From Bacilli bacterium (GTDB lineage Bacteria; Bacillota_I; Bacilli_A; RF39; UBA660), in NCBI GenBank assembly GCA_017541325.1, contig JAFXZI010000004.1:1-64000 (forward strand): a DNA stretch of 64,000 nt, in the 5' to 3' direction. Numbering within the stretch: position 1 is the stretch's first letter; each line of letters starts with the position of its first letter. The translations under genes and the position numbers were made by a program. Below, in pieces: positions 55,428 to 61,434 of this stretch. The notes beneath the pieces were generated by a model. That model saw only the letters and a program-made list of their open reading frames with translations, had not been told where the DNA came from and did not search any database.

Positions 55428-55937
55428 TTATATATTATCTATGTTTACTAAAACATAATCAAATTTTTCAACACTAGTAACAGTTCCACAGAAACTACAT
55501 CTACCATTATAATTAATATCTAAACTTGCTCCACAGTTTGGACACTTAACAAGTTCTCCTCTTGAGGCTGCATCCTTTCTTTTTCTAAACAATAAATGAT
55601 GATTAACATCTAATCTATGATCATTAATTCCTCTTTTATATTTTAAAGATTCACTATCAATAACATAGTCCATATAGTGAGATAAAATTCTAACTTCAAT
55701 ATAATTATATTTTTCATCATCATATTTTTTTAATAATTCTACCTCACCAACATTTAATTCATCATAACATTGGTACTCTTTTTGTTCTTTAAATTTTTTA
55801 CATCTTTCTTGGAACATATCATATAATTCATCTGAGATATAGTGTTTTACGTTAGTCATATCATTTTCCATTAATCCAGTAAGTATCATTATAAATACAT
55901 TACTAAATTTACTTTTTAATTCAACATCATTTTCCAT
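55428..55937 (-). CDS. Tim44-like domain protein with zinc ribbon
   Basis: The 169-residue protein has a helical/beta Tim44-like region (about 5-120: LMENDMTNVKHYISDELYDMFQ), then a zinc ribbon KCPNCGASLDI...CSFCGTV (four Cys at about 131-151). It lacks the signal and membrane parts of its neighbour. It lies 8 bp after the larger Tim44-like gene and looks like a paralogue of that protein's C-terminal half. Confidence 0.75.
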   Translation of the reverse strand: MENDVELKSKFSNVFIMILTGLMENDMTNVKHYISDELYDMFQERCKKFKEQKEYQCYDELNVGEVELLKKYDDEKYNYIEVRILSHYMDYVIDSESLKYKRGINDHRLDVNHHLLFRKRKDAASRGELVKCPNCGASLDINYNGRCSFCGTVTSVEKFDYVLVNIDNI

Positions 55938-55945
55938 ATACTCAC

Positions 55946-56842
55946 CTATCTTTGATTATTCATATGTTTTCTAGTCATTACTAAATTTGGAGAATTACGT
56001 ACAAGTAAAGTTCTACAATATGGACAAATTAATCTAGATCCTACCTCTTCATCTAAACCTGCTCCACAATTAGGACATTTTTTTAATACTTCATCCTTAT
56101 TTTTAGCAAGTAAATAATCAATAGTATATTCATAATTCCATAATTTATTTTTATTTCCTCTTAATACTTTTTCTGTATTTAAATCTATCAAATAGTCTTT
56201 ACAATTAACATTTAAAAATACAGATATTGATAATTTATCATTTGAATCATCTATATCATAAATATATCCATCTAAATAGTTAAAATCGCTCATTATATTA
56301 CTTTGATTTTTTCTTTTTAAAGTTAATAATTGCATTTTATATGTATTATATAATTCATCTGATAATTTTTCTTTTACTAAATTGATATCATTTTTCATCC
56401 ATGCATTTTGAATATCTACATATGTTTGGTATGCAAGTTCCAACATTTTTTTCTCATCTATTCCATATTTAGCTATTTTTTCTTGTAGATTGCTTTGTCT
56501 AACTGGTTTTGCAACTGATTTAAAACCTTTTTTTGATGTTTTTATATCTAAAACAATAAAATATATTATTATCATATTAAAAATGATAAGCATAAATATT
56601 ATTTCGCCAGTAGACAATTCTTCATCTCCAGAACTACTGCTACTGCTACTTGAACTCCAAGAACTACCTGAATCCCATGAACTTCCACTTGAACTCCAAG
56701 AACTGCCTCCAGAATCCCAACTAGAGTCAAATCCAGAATCAACAGTTACACGTTTTAAGTCAAAACTATTGGTACGATATGCTAAAAACGCAGTCGATAT
56801 TACAAATACAAAAATCATAAAATGTTTTAAATTTTTTTTCAT
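55946..56842 (-). CDS. Membrane Tim44-like domain protein with Ser/Trp/Gly-rich segment and zinc ribbon
   Basis: The 298-residue protein has a signal-like segment (about 6-22), a low-complexity region of Ser, Gly, Trp and Asp (about 37-72), a membrane helix (about 78-98), a Tim44-like domain (about 130-250: AYQTYVDIQNAWMKNDINLV), and a zinc ribbon KCPNCGAGL...CPYCRTL. Such proteins are common in Bacillota but undefined. It starts 8 bp after the very large gene upstream, so they likely share a transcript. Confidence 0.78.
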   Translation of the reverse strand: MKKNLKHFMIFVFVISTAFLAYRTNSFDLKRVTVDSGFDSSWDSGGSSWSSSGSSWDSGSSWSSSSSSSSSGDEELSTGEIIFMLIIFNMIIIYFIVLDIKTSKKGFKSVAKPVRQSNLQEKIAKYGIDEKKMLELAYQTYVDIQNAWMKNDINLVKEKLSDELYNTYKMQLLTLKRKNQSNIMSDFNYLDGYIYDIDDSNDKLSISVFLNVNCKDYLIDLNTEKVLRGNKNKLWNYEYTIDYLLAKNKDEVLKKCPNCGAGLDEEVGSRLICPYCRTLLVRNSPNLVMTRKHMNNQR

Positions 56843-56850
56843 TATTTCAC

Positions 56851-59800
56851 CTACTTAGTTGTTTGTTTAACTTCACTGACTTCAACAGTTTTTACATATG
56901 CTTTTAGTGCAGCAACCATTTTATCATATCCACCACTACTCATATTATTATTTACAAAGTTATCATGTGGATATTTGCCTCTTTTTGATGCTAAATGATT
57001 CTCACCGAAATCCCATACAGCATAACTTCTTCTAAATTCTTCAAAAGATTTACCTTCGGCAGCTTCTAAGAAACTTGTTGCAGCTTCATAGAAAGAACCT
57101 CCATTTTGTAAAATCCAGTTTTCAATACCTACTCCACCTAATCCACCTTGTGGAGTGTCTCCTCTATTTGGTTTATATGCTTCAGCTTCTTTTAATACAC
57201 GTTTTGCTAATAAGATATTTGCAACAACATAACTATACTTTTCAGGATCTTGCTTCTTTATACTAGATAGTCTATCTTCAAGAGCCATATCCGTAGAATA
57301 TGTTACTTCATCAGTCTTTTCAATAAATGTTATATCTATATCTACAGTTACATCAGGAGATACATCTACACCTTTTAATCTAAAGTCTCCTGTTCCAATA
57401 ATTCCTGATGAATCATTTTCTCGTCCTAAATTTTTTAATAATACTCTTCTTAATTCTTCCATCTTTTTAGGATCAGAATAAATGGCTTTATCAACTCTCA
57501 TCATGAAGTCAAAATCACCATCTCCTGGTTTATTTGTTCCTCTTCCAGTTGAACCAGTATCAAATAATTCAACAAATCCTTCAGTTAAATCACCATCAAT
57601 AGTTGTTTTAAGTTTTAGCCCCATTTCTTCAAGTGATTTTGCAATTGCTCTATTAATTAATTCTCTTTTTCTTTGTGTTTCAATATTACTTTCTTCTATC
57701 AAAGATGCTAATTCTTCAACATCTGGAGTAATAAGACTATCACTAAATACATATTCGCTTTCTCCAAAATGTGACATACCAGCCATAGCTTTTCTCATAT
57801 CTAAATAATCATCATAAGAGAAAACTATTTCTCCTTCTTTATTAGCAACTGGAATATAGAAACCATTAATTGCAATTTCAAGTCCTATTCTAGGATCATA
57901 TGATTCTGCTACTATGCAATCTATTTCAGAAGATGCAAATCCAGTTCTTATACCATAATGAGATTTACCTACAACACCAGTATAAAACAACTCTAATTTA
58001 GATAGATTCCTTTTTGCACCATCTTCTACTCCATTTCCATCTCTTGTAATATTAAATCTATCATCATTTCTAAGAACAAACCAAATATTTCCATATGATC
58101 TTGCAGCTGAATTTTGAATTTGTTCTCCTATAGTACCGTCTACTTCTATCATAGCTACATCAGTATCTAGTGGCGTTCCATCACTAGTAGCATGACTTCC
58201 TAAAAACTCTTTAGCAACAATACCATTTTGAAGTAAACTTCCTAAATATTCAATACTACCAATTCCTTTAACAAGATCACCCTTTTGGAATACTACTTTA
58301 TCTTTTGCAGTTTCAATATTTCTTTGTTCTCCATCTTTTATTCTTTTTGAGATATATTCTTTAGCTTGTTCAATCGTATCAATACCAGCAAAATGACAGA
58401 ACATAGATACAACTCTATCACCTAAGTCAAAATCTAATTTACCGTTTGGAGCAACTAATTCATATAATTTATTTAAATCATCAATAACTGAATCAGTGTG
58501 TACAAAACTACCACCTTTTCTTTGACTTAATAAACTATTGTTGTATAGTGTAGAAATATTTCTACTAAATAACAATAAACGATCTTGTTCTTCTTTTGAT
58601 AAATCTTCATATTTAACTTGTCCTGCTCTAATTCTTTTATAAATTTCATTACTTTTAGATAAATTATCTAAATAATTATTAACAGACCTATTATTTGAAC
58701 CAAATGAAGCCTTTATTAAATCAGAGAAAATGATTAATTCTCTTGCAGTACTACTACTTCTTTTTAAAGTTGGAGAAATAGCAGATTTTACATAATCAAA
58801 TCCTTCTGTTTTTGGATGTAGTATTCTAAAGCATGAATAAATCTTACCAACAACAGGAACATGATTTTTTAAGAATGTTTCTTCAATTTGTTCAAGTGTA
58901 GATAGTGGATTTTCAGTATCTAATATTTGATTAGCTAAAGAAAGTTTAAAACTACGTATTTCACTTGAATTTGATAATGATAAACGTCTTAATACTTCTA
59001 CACTATGCTCGATATTATCCATATTAACATTATCTGATTTAACTAAATATTCAATAAATAATCTTCTTAATTCAACATCATCTATTTTTTGACAATAAAT
59101 ATATATTTTCATTCTATTTAGATTTGCTGTTTCAATAGATTCATTTTCAAACAATTTATGCATCCAAGAATAATCAAGTGGTAATCCAAAAGAAATATCA
59201 GTATTTTTAAAATATTTCATAAATTCTGGATCATTAAAATCATCAATAGTTACATTTCTTCCATAGAACTTATCTTGAATAGCCGGAGGAACATCTTTAT
59301 CTAAAAATAACGTTGGATATTTTGTCATAAAATGTTCTCCAATAGATGGGCTATAAGCAAATTTTCCAGAAACAATATTATCATATATTTCTTTTTCTAT
59401 AATATTAATAATATCTTCTTTAGTTATATTTGATCTAAATACAGATGTTATATCTGTCATTTTTTCTAAATATTCGCCATATGTAAATAGTAATTCAAAA
59501 GCATCTTTTCTACCCAACTTTTCCTCTAAATATACAGCTAGGTTAGTCATTTCTGGATATGATAACTTATCTTTTTCTCTTAATACTTTTATTCTAGGGA
59601 AAAACAAACCTAAATCTATTTTATTGAAATATGTTTCAATTTGATCCCTATTATTCTTAATATATTCAGCAGTTAACTCTCTGTTATAAAATAATTTCTT
59701 TAAATCATCAGGAGTGTTAATTGGTAAGAATGTATCTGGATACCTTTCTATTAATTCATCTGGAATAAACTCTGGAAATCTTCCTTTTTCATGTATTACA

Positions 59801-61434
59801 GAATGTCTTACCATTTGTACAAGAATATCTTTCATATCTTCTACAGTTGATTCTTCAGCAAAAGCAATATCACGATTATCATGTATATATTTGAAAAAAT
59901 ATGCATAATCTTTAATAAAATTTAAAGCATCTATACTACTATTATTTTTTAACAAAAATGGATATAATTCATACCAAGTACATCTATAAAAATCATATTC
60001 TTCGAAATCACTATTTGCATCTATTACAGGAACTTGAATTCCTTTAAATCCAACTATTAAATCTTTTCCTTCAAGGTAAGGAATATATTCTGGATGTTCA
60101 TGCAATATAACAGGAGTTAATTTCTTTGTATAAAATAAATTTTGCAATTCTTCAGGTGCATCATCACTTAAGAAAAATCCTGGGTATACTTCTCTAAATT
60201 TTCCACCAATACTTCTAAAGTCTGGTGCTTGATCAGAATAATTCCAATCATTTGGTCCATACATAATCATACGTTTAACTATTTCGTAAAAATCTTCTAA
60301 TGTATATCCGCTTACATAATTACCATCTTGATCAAACTTAACTGGAAGAAAACTTGTATCATTATTGTGATTATTATTAGCATAATGCAAATACATTGGA
60401 TATACTAGTCTTAACATACGAAAATCATCTTTAGAAAAAAAGTGATCACATTCTCTATCAAATTGCATTATGTTTTTTAGTCCATAAAGATACATAACAC
60501 TAAGAATATTGTTTTCGAATAATAATTGAAATGGTAAACCACTATCTAATACTTCTTCAATAGTATTTTTTTCCAATAAATCTTGAAAATAGAATTCATC
60601 GCTACTCTTTTTATCCTTTATTACTTCTAATGGATCCACGTATTTAAATAATTCTTTAAAGTCATCATTTGATAATACTTTTTCGTTTGAAGAAGATAAA
60701 ACACGTCCAACAATATCAGAACTAATTCTAGCTAAATATTCATTTTTTGATTCTTCTGTTCCTGTTAATACAATATTTATAAAATCATACGGATCAATTA
60801 ATTGTTCTTCCATTGCAAGATTTATAATAATATTATATTGTTCCATAATATCTCTAATTTGTTCAGTTGTAATATTATGTTCATTTTTAATATCTCTTCC
60901 TAGACAAAAAGATAAATCCTTATCTTTAAATATACTCCAGTACTTTACCATTTCATCTATGGTTAATGATCCATCATTAAATCTTTCAGCTATATAATAT
61001 GAATTTGAATCTAGTGAATCCAGCTCTTGTTCAGAGAAAACCTTTTCAGGATGAAGTTCTCTCATTTTTTCCGTATAATATTTTGGTTTTAACTCTCTAT
61101 AACCAATTTCATATACAGCCTCTATTGGATCTATTCCTCTATCAACAAGATTTAAAAACTCACTCATGAAATTAAAATTATCTCTAGATGAATAAAAAGA
61201 ATTTCTAAGTAAATTTATTAATCCCCAGTCTAAACCCTTAGCCTTTTCTAATCCAATTTTATCTACAATTAATCTATCGTTTTGTAACATACATTCTAAA
61301 GGGATTTTATCAAATAAGTCATACATAACATAATCGGAAAAAGTTAAATATTTGTTATATACTCTTTCTAAAACATCTTTAGGTACATTTAATCTTTTTC
61401 CAAATAATTGTCTTCTTTCATATTTGTACTTCAT
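56851..61434 (-). CDS. 1,527-residue repeat protein with C-terminal nucleotidyltransferase domain
   Basis: Residues 1-1040 are helical. A motif of the form YPxxFL...P..L...FY...LT...DLxxG recurs at about 417, 565 and 706 (spacing 148 and 141), with a weaker copy at about 128. Residues about 1050-1200 (KGIGSIEYLGSLLQNGIV, LEIAINGFYIPV) faintly recall an ADP-ribosyltransferase-like fold, which I cannot prove. Residues about 1285-1375 hold a polymerase-beta-type nucleotidyltransferase core: DTGSTGRGT, DGDFDFMM, and a third acidic VDIDITF. The next part (GGVGIENWILQNGGSF) resembles the C-terminal domain of CCA-adding or OAS-like enzymes. AGGTG precedes the ATG. Substrate and role are unknown. Confidence 0.8.
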   Translation of the reverse strand: MKYKYERRQLFGKRLNVPKDVLERVYNKYLTFSDYVMYDLFDKIPLECMLQNDRLIVDKIGLEKAKGLDWGLINLLRNSFYSSRDNFNFMSEFLNLVDRGIDPIEAVYEIGYRELKPKYYTEKMRELHPEKVFSEQELDSLDSNSYYIAERFNDGSLTIDEMVKYWSIFKDKDLSFCLGRDIKNEHNITTEQIRDIMEQYNIIINLAMEEQLIDPYDFINIVLTGTEESKNEYLARISSDIVGRVLSSSNEKVLSNDDFKELFKYVDPLEVIKDKKSSDEFYFQDLLEKNTIEEVLDSGLPFQLLFENNILSVMYLYGLKNIMQFDRECDHFFSKDDFRMLRLVYPMYLHYANNNHNNDTSFLPVKFDQDGNYVSGYTLEDFYEIVKRMIMYGPNDWNYSDQAPDFRSIGGKFREVYPGFFLSDDAPEELQNLFYTKKLTPVILHEHPEYIPYLEGKDLIVGFKGIQVPVIDANSDFEEYDFYRCTWYELYPFLLKNNSSIDALNFIKDYAYFFKYIHDNRDIAFAEESTVEDMKDILVQMVRHSVIHEKGRFPEFIPDELIERYPDTFLPINTPDDLKKLFYNRELTAEYIKNNRDQIETYFNKIDLGLFFPRIKVLREKDKLSYPEMTNLAVYLEEKLGRKDAFELLFTYGEYLEKMTDITSVFRSNITKEDIINIIEKEIYDNIVSGKFAYSPSIGEHFMTKYPTLFLDKDVPPAIQDKFYGRNVTIDDFNDPEFMKYFKNTDISFGLPLDYSWMHKLFENESIETANLNRMKIYIYCQKIDDVELRRLFIEYLVKSDNVNMDNIEHSVEVLRRLSLSNSSEIRSFKLSLANQILDTENPLSTLEQIEETFLKNHVPVVGKIYSCFRILHPKTEGFDYVKSAISPTLKRSSSTARELIIFSDLIKASFGSNNRSVNNYLDNLSKSNEIYKRIRAGQVKYEDLSKEEQDRLLLFSRNISTLYNNSLLSQRKGGSFVHTDSVIDDLNKLYELVAPNGKLDFDLGDRVVSMFCHFAGIDTIEQAKEYISKRIKDGEQRNIETAKDKVVFQKGDLVKGIGSIEYLGSLLQNGIVAKEFLGSHATSDGTPLDTDVAMIEVDGTIGEQIQNSAARSYGNIWFVLRNDDRFNITRDGNGVEDGAKRNLSKLELFYTGVVGKSHYGIRTGFASSEIDCIVAESYDPRIGLEIAINGFYIPVANKEGEIVFSYDDYLDMRKAMAGMSHFGESEYVFSDSLITPDVEELASLIEESNIETQRKRELINRAIAKSLEEMGLKLKTTIDGDLTEGFVELFDTGSTGRGTNKPGDGDFDFMMRVDKAIYSDPKKMEELRRVLLKNLGRENDSSGIIGTGDFRLKGVDVSPDVTVDIDITFIEKTDEVTYSTDMALEDRLSSIKKQDPEKYSYVVANILLAKRVLKEAEAYKPNRGDTPQGGLGGVGIENWILQNGGSFYEAATSFLEAAEGKSFEEFRRSYAVWDFGENHLASKRGKYPHDNFVNNNMSSGGYDKMVAALKAYVKTVEVSEVKQTTK

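What the first reader, a model, noticed from the sequence alone, without database searches (positions are those of the whole stretch)
56851..61434. 1,527-residue protein joining repeats, a possible ADP-ribosyltransferase-like part and a nucleotidyltransferase
Four repeats of about 145 residues, then a region faintly like ADP-ribosyltransferases, then a complete-looking nucleotidyltransferase core (GS motif, DxD, third acidic) with an OAS/CCA-like C-terminal domain. I know of no characterised protein with this layout. Nucleotidyltransferases of this fold make tRNA ends, second messengers or modify toxins; the size and repeats suggest a large sensor or scaffold with an enzymatic head.
Basis: partly seen in the sequence, partly recalled or inferred. 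Interest (0 to 1): 0.7.

Follow-up and report, generated by a model that had tools for sequence, protein, structure and literature searches.

The report
Fused ART-fold and nucleotidyltransferase giant protein
This 1,527-residue gut-bacterial protein joins a fast-changing repeat region to two enzyme-like parts, one shaped like toxins that attach ADP-ribose and one like enzymes that make immune signal nucleotides, and it belongs to an apparently undescribed family shared by several groups of small-genome bacteria.

Summary
Structure prediction supports both enzyme parts. Residues ~1237-1526 adopt an OAS/CD-NTase/class I CCA nucleotidyltransferase fold (Foldseek: CdnC E 8e-5, archaeal CCA E 2e-4, probability 1.00). 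The GS, DxD and third-Asp residues are invariant in 67 of 67 relatives. Residues ~1044-1231 adopt an ADP-ribosyltransferase (ART) fold, with DarT1 as best hit (E 4e-3, probability 0.98) and most other credible hits also ARTs, although no curated DarT or ART profile matches the window protein. Three ~143-residue repeats are solid (407-547, 554-692, 697-826); a fourth is at noise level. The ART+NTase core is a widespread family: about 85 of 92 proteins carry it whole, from Bacilli gut MAGs, Clostridia, Saccharibacteria, Parcubacteria and Peribacteria. It was not found in phage, plasmid or viral collections. Between sister genomes, syntenic copies are 48-82% identical while neighbours are mostly 75-98%; the N-terminus changes fastest, the NTase is constrained. 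There is no signal peptide, membrane segment or constant partner gene. Some relatives are 3,000-6,800 residues long with classical toxin ART or papain-like domains. Most likely it is a self-contained biological-conflict protein with a variable recognition arm and a two-enzyme head. Substrates are unknown.

The parts
56851..61434 (-). whole gene, 1527 aa, ATG start, no signal peptide or membrane segment
   Evidence: own-genome and relative matches
60223..61434 (-). residues 1-404: variable N-terminal part, at most very diverged repeat copies
   Evidence: copies near noise; significant copies at the equivalent place in relatives
59794..60216 (-). repeat A, residues 407-547
   Evidence: E 8.6e-37
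59359..59775 (-). repeat B, residues 554-692
   Evidence: E 3.2e-35
58957..59346 (-). repeat C, residues 697-826
   Evidence: E 4.1e-34
58333..59004 (-). residues 811-1034: conserved helical linker that opens the family core
   Evidence: alignment A1; helices in the model from residue 985 on
57742..58305 (-). residues 1044-1231: ADP-ribosyltransferase-fold domain; invariant G1052 D1053 G1071 D1085 T1087 D1090 D1092, near-invariant E1076 E1148 R1163
   Evidence: AlphaFold models; Foldseek; conservation
58267..58269 (-). K1056 (K, R or H in all 67): proposed NAD-binding basic residue on strand 1
   Evidence: role inferred from the ART superfamily
57991..57993 (-). E1148 (65 of 67): proposed catalytic glutamate at the start of the strand after a variable ARTT-like loop
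   Evidence: role inferred
56857..57726 (-). residues 1237-1526: OAS/CD-NTase/class I CCA-type nucleotidyltransferase with helical C-terminal subdomain (GGLGGxGxEN)
57532..57555 (-). GSTGRGTN motif, residues 1294-1301 (G1294, S1295, R1298 invariant in 67/67)
57508..57516 (-). D1307-F-D1309, metal-binding Asp pair (67/67)
57334..57336 (-). D1367, third catalytic Asp (67/67)

Best explanation
The protein belongs to an apparently undescribed family of large soluble proteins that join an ADP-ribosyltransferase-fold domain and an OAS/CD-NTase/CCA-type nucleotidyltransferase into one conserved two-enzyme core (shown at fold and conservation level). Ahead of the core sits a long, fast-evolving, exchangeable N-terminal arm of repeats (shown). 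I infer that the arm recognises a partner or target and that the core then uses NAD+ and NTP to modify that target or nucleic acid, in a conflict between the bacterium and another cell or element. Everything needed would be carried in one chain rather than in an operon. Substrates, products and the identity of the opponent are not known.
For: Fold of both domains (pLDDT 91.5, pTM 0.88). NTase catalytic residues invariant and ART residues G1052, D1053, D1085, T1087, D1090, D1092 and E1148 invariant or nearly so in 67 relatives, so both parts are probably active. Both domains travel together in nearly all members. Rapid divergence: the two best-kept flanking proteins 96-97% against 48% for the L020/L021 proteins, and 94-98% against 82% for L063/L070. 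dN/dS is 0.64-0.69 in parts of the N-terminal arm against 0.08 in an NTase block and 0.06-0.18 in neighbours. Patchy presence: 22 of 288 genomes of the order. N-terminal arms vary: up to six copies of the 145-residue repeat, or 8 copies of a 49-residue repeat in L035. Giant members also carry ADPrib_exo_Tox (E 2e-16 to 4e-15), and one also C39 peptidase and transglutaminase-like domains. ART and Pol-beta NTase domains are typical of conflict proteins (PMC5512222).
Against: No immunity gene, effector gene or secretion signal goes with it, which most known toxins and CBASS systems have. The gene is chromosomal and positionally conserved in some sister species. Fast evolution has other causes, and higher dS at the locus suggests old alleles exchanged by recombination as well as selection. 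The ART domain matches no curated DarT or ART family by sequence, its motif is unusual and Foldseek TM-scores to ARTs are low (0.3-0.4 for DarT).
Confidence: 0.5

Rival explanations
1. Intracellular anti-phage sensor: the repeat arm detects infection, the NTase makes a nucleotide signal or tags RNA, and the fused ART is the built-in effector, a one-chain relative of CBASS or DarT defence.
For: Best fold hits are CBASS CD-NTases and the defence toxin DarT; 50/67 members match a PADLOC cyclase model; no N-terminal signal in 93 members; patchy presence and fast N-terminus; fits the absence of partner genes.
Against: No neighbouring defence genes or defence-island context; the repeats match no known sensor; giant relatives look like toxins rather than sensors.
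Confidence: 0.3
2. Effector or toxin delivered into another cell (protist or bacterium of the gut) by an unknown route, where the ART ADP-ribosylates and the NTase nucleotidylates host molecules.
For: Giant members combine the core with ADPrib_exo_Tox, and one also with C39 peptidase, transglutaminase-like and weak HopA1-like domains; presence in small-genome Bacilli, Saccharibacteria and other CPR bacteria, some known epibionts (lifestyle from general knowledge); rapid divergence.
Against: No signal peptide, no immunity gene; no secretion system was sought; CPR and Bacilli do not share an obvious delivery machine.
Confidence: 0.25
3. RNA-end or tRNA processing enzyme: a Tpt1/KptA-like ART that handles RNA phosphates joined to a CCA-like NTase that adds nucleotides, with the repeats as an RNA-binding arm.
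For: Second fold hit of the ART domain is 1wfx (APE0204, known to me as a Tpt1/KptA homologue; prob 0.89) and yeast Tpt1 gives TMt 0.59; archaeal CCA enzyme is the second NTase hit and TIGR03671 hits 15/67 members.
Against: KptA's conserved R-H-H-R set is not recognisable; fast N-terminal evolution and patchy presence are unlike RNA housekeeping.
Confidence: 0.12
4. The ART-fold region has lost NAD+ chemistry and is only a regulatory or binding lobe for the NTase; the protein is a nucleotide-signal synthase with a scaffold arm.
For: Canonical ART motifs are not found by sequence profiles; low TM-scores; a few members keep the NTase with only the end of the ART region (L028, L097, L102).
Against: Polar residues in the ART region are invariant in 67 relatives, which a mere binding lobe would hardly need.
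Confidence: 0.2

Closest known systems
CD-NTases (CdnC, CdnE, CdnD; CBASS cyclases, OAS/cGAS-like)
   Same: NTase fold (6u7b E 8.3e-5, 6p80, 6wt9), GS...DxD...D residues, PADLOC cyclase profile hits in 50/67 relatives.
   Different: Fused behind an ART domain and a 1,000-residue arm; no effector gene nearby; window protein itself matches only at E 0.011.
Archaeal class I CCA-adding enzyme
   Same: Second-best fold hit (1r89 E 2e-4); TIGR03671 weak hits in 15/67.
   Different: Unrelated N-terminal two thirds, patchy distribution; no TIGR03671 match in the window protein itself.
DarT ssDNA ADP-ribosyltransferase
   Same: Best fold hit of the ART part (8baq E 4.3e-3, prob 0.98); local match of strand 1-helix 1 in profile comparison (P 0.0067).
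   Different: No PF14487 match in this genome, no DarG macro-domain partner seen, different conserved motif, TM-score only ~0.36-0.39.
Tpt1/KptA RNA 2'-phosphotransferase
   Same: ART fold hits 1wfx and 7yw4, viral Tpt1 hits.
   Different: No recognisable KptA motif set; large multidomain protein.
Polyvalent proteins of phages and conjugative elements (PMC5512222)
   Same: Large chains that combine ARTs, Pol-beta NTases and peptidases.
   Different: This family is chromosomal, not found in phage, plasmid or IMG/VR records.
Polymorphic toxins
   Same: Giant members with toxin ART or papain-like domains; rapid divergence.
   Different: Here the N-terminus varies and the C-terminus is constant; no immunity gene, no secretion module found.

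Membership tests
Pol-beta/OAS-type nucleotidyltransferase superfamily | GS motif, DxD pair and third Asp | tested here: met
   Invariant in 67/67
Pol-beta/OAS-type nucleotidyltransferase superfamily | NTase fold | tested here: met
CBASS CD-NTase | profile match to CD-NTase models | tested here: inconclusive
   50/67 relatives match, best E 2.4e-6; window protein E 0.011; SMODS in 9/67
CBASS CD-NTase | operon with a nucleotide-activated effector | tested here: not met
   No conserved neighbour
CBASS CD-NTase | makes a cyclic oligonucleotide | not testable with these tools
   needs enzyme assay
Class I CCA-adding enzyme | fold and C-terminal helical subdomain | tested here: inconclusive
   Fold hit E 2e-4, TIGR03671 weak in 15/67, none in the window protein
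ADP-ribosyltransferase superfamily | ART fold | tested here: met
   Best hits of the ART-only model are ARTs, DarT1 prob 0.98; TM-scores low
ADP-ribosyltransferase superfamily | R/H - S/Y - E active-site triad | tested here: inconclusive
   K/R/H1056, T1087 and E1148 are conserved at plausible places, but no residue-level structural superposition could be made
DarT | PF14487 profile match | tested here: not met
   No match in this genome; not among families listed for the 67 core sequences
DarT | DarG macro-domain antitoxin next door | tested here: not met
   No shared neighbour family; neighbouring ORFs read by eye, not profile-searched
Polymorphic toxin | adjacent immunity gene and secretion-linked N-terminus | tested here: not met
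Polyvalent protein | encoded by a phage or conjugative element | tested here: not met
   chromosomal neighbours

The most novel reading that the evidence does not exclude
A one-chain immune or attack machine in which a rapidly evolving recognition arm switches on a coupled ART-NTase pair. The two active sites may work on the same substrate, for example ADP-ribose transfer followed by nucleotide addition, making a modification or signal not known so far. The same machine would be used across gut Bacilli and ultra-small CPR bacteria.
Probability: 0.2. Interest if true: 0.85.

Novelty: new variant of a known kind. Interest (0 to 1): 0.62.

Why it matters
Two enzyme folds central to bacterial immunity and toxins, ARTs and OAS/CD-NTases, are fused in a conserved core that I could find in no curated family, solved structure or paper. 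The family occurs in uncultured small-genome gut Bacilli and in CPR bacteria (Saccharibacteria, Parcubacteria, Peribacteria), whose means of attack and defence are poorly known. It gives a clear test: do the two active sites work on one substrate?

Tried and rejected
Direct Pfam, NCBIfam and PDB sequence searches with the whole protein gave nothing; profile searches against the PDB gave only chance hits. Profile-profile comparison with DarT and with SMODS sequences gave only short local matches at the expected motifs, probability 6-9%, so sequence alone does not settle the ART. A mobile-element origin was tested and not supported: no phage, plasmid or viral-contig relatives and mostly housekeeping neighbours. 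A conserved operon partner (antitoxin, effector) was sought and not found. A membrane or Sec-secreted protein was rejected by hydropathy. Chance or artefact is rejected by recurrence in dozens of genomes.
Full report
What is there. The ORF 56851-61434 on the minus strand encodes 1,527 residues with no signal peptide or membrane segment by hydropathy. The genome is 1.25 Mb and 97% complete. Whole-protein searches of Pfam, NCBIfam and the PDB give no credible hit. The genome holds one paralogue, 41% identical over residues 811-1519, so the conserved unit is the C-terminal half.

Repeats. An HMM trained on relatives finds three copies at residues 407-547, 554-692 and 697-826 with E 1e-34 to 1e-37. 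The earlier matches are near noise: 1 of 200 shuffles reaches the best score. In relatives the number of clear copies runs up to six and extra copies appear near residues ~129 and ~265, so the arm was probably built of more units that have decayed here. The repeat has no Pfam or PDB relative. Its consensus, around 'IPxxFxxxYPxLFLxxxAPxELQxxFYxRxIT', suggests helices, but its structure was not predicted.

Family. A scan of 84,980 species genomes returned 77 loci. Most proteins are 1,100-1,900 residues with the NTase at the C-terminus. About 85 of 92 contain the complete ART+NTase core. Hosts are mainly Bacilli MAGs from ruminants and rabbits, with Clostridia, Tenericutes, Saccharibacteria, and single Parcubacteria and Peribacteria. 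The core tree groups four Saccharibacteria proteins in a well supported clade (100/99) among Bacilli sequences, while three others sit elsewhere on long branches. In the window's order 22 of 288 genomes have the core, so it is patchy. It is absent from phage, plasmid and viral-contig collections at the sensitivity used.

Nucleotidyltransferase. AlphaFold on residues 985-1527 with 67 sequences gives pLDDT 91.5 and pTM 0.88. Foldseek puts CdnC first (E 8.3e-5), then the archaeal class I CCA enzyme (2e-4), CdnE, OAS1, TUT7 and cGAS-like receptors, most with probability 0.97-1.00. G1294, S1295, R1298, D1307, D1309 and D1367 are identical in all 67 sequences. Relatives match PADLOC cyclase models (50/67, best 2.4e-6), NTP_transf_2 (19/67), SMODS (9/67) and archaeal CCA (15/67). 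The superfamily is secure. Whether it makes a signal, extends RNA or modifies protein is open.

ART part. The domain at ~1044-1231, modelled alone, has pLDDT 88 and pTM 0.81. Its best solved-structure match is DarT1 (E 4.3e-3, probability 0.98), followed by 1wfx (0.89), which I know as a Tpt1/KptA homologue. Apart from low-probability spurious hits such as spike proteins, most remaining matches in the top 50 are ARTs. Viral-library hits include a PARP-like protein, Tpt1/KptA proteins and DarT. TM-scores are low (0.3-0.4 for DarT, 0.59 to the short yeast Tpt1), and no curated DarT or ART profile is met. So this is a divergent member of the fold, not a DarT. G1052, D1053, G1071, D1085, T1087, D1090 and D1092 are invariant. 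E1076 is 66/67, E1148 and R1163 are 65/67, and position 1056 is always K, R or H. E1148 opens the strand after a loop of variable length, where ARTs have their catalytic glutamate. That assignment is an inference, because no superposition at residue level was possible.

Evolution. In three syntenic pairs the family protein changes faster than most of its neighbours. L020/L021: 48% against 96-97% for the two best-kept flanking proteins, although other neighbours in that pair range down to 55%. L018/L025: 49% over the aligned part against 82-87% for the upstream genes. L063/L070: 82% against 94-98%. In L063/L070, dN/dS reaches 0.64-0.69 in two N-terminal blocks but is 0.08 in an NTase block and 0.06-0.18 in neighbours. 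dS is also raised at the locus, in L020/L021 0.92 against 0.30, which suggests old alleles exchanged by recombination. This is the pattern of proteins in conflict, with a free arm and a conserved enzyme head. dN/dS stays below 1, so positive selection is not shown.

Context. No gene family accompanies the locus; neighbours are mostly ordinary chromosomal genes. Some members are giants: a 6,816-residue frame in G047 and open frames of more than 3,000-4,000 residues in L057, L065 and L067. The G047, L065 and L067 chains also carry a classical ADPrib_exo_Tox domain (E 2e-16 to 4e-15), and the G047 chain also has C39 peptidase and transglutaminase-like domains. Large chains mixing ARTs, Pol-beta NTases and peptidases are described as polyvalent proteins of phages and conjugative elements (PMC5512222), but this family is chromosomal.

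Interpretation. Shown: fold of both enzymes, conservation of their key residues, their constant pairing, the variable arm, and fast divergence. Inferred: that both enzymes are active, that the arm recognises something, and that the setting is conflict. I cannot separate an intracellular defence protein from an injected effector, since neither a secretion signal nor a defence neighbourhood is present. A Tpt1-like plus CCA-like RNA processor remains possible. The confidences given to the rivals overlap with the best explanation, because the first two rivals are specific forms of it. The finding is a real, apparently undescribed combination of known enzyme kinds and is worth biochemical follow-up.

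Noticed in passing
L022:1-19899 and L023:1-1449 (G047:C32): A 6,816-residue open frame holding the same core plus Peptidase_C39_2 (E 9.6e-12), Transglut_core, BtrH_N, weak HopA1-like and a classical ADPrib_exo_Tox domain (E 2.3e-16), next to ordinary chromosomal genes.
   Followed up: partly
L067:3-12077, L065:2-9064, L057:1041-10091; G312:C12: Further giants (over 3,000-5,100 residues). L067 and L065 carry ADPrib_exo_Tox (E 4e-15, 1e-15) after the core, followed by what looks by eye like an HD-type domain.
   Followed up: partly
L087:1249-13344: Three family genes in tandem, 1166, 1415 and 1406 residues.
   Followed up: no
L106:1-5274: Peribacteria chain with two NTase domains; its ART strand 1 reads GDLLHGT, like the H-G-T of PARP-type ARTs.
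   Followed up: no
L035:2651-3861: The usual arm is replaced by 8.2 similar copies (82% matches) of a 49-residue repeat, expanded at DNA level.
   Followed up: partly
L026:6968-11824: Same 145-residue repeats as the window protein but a different, cysteine-containing C-terminal domain (LTDCCQELNNCAEVCMEHSM): the arm is shared between different heads.
   Followed up: partly
L028/L104, L097, L102, L092: Members with the NTase and only the last ~85 residues before it; L092 has a different, unidentified region in place of the ART.
   Followed up: partly
L042:98-6135: A family gene lies beside what looks like a serine recombinase, a possible route of movement.
   Followed up: no
window 55428-56842: Two proteins with zinc-ribbon-like cysteine pairs, one with a Ser/Gly-rich stretch, directly downstream of the gene on the same strand; not shared by other family loci.
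   Followed up: no
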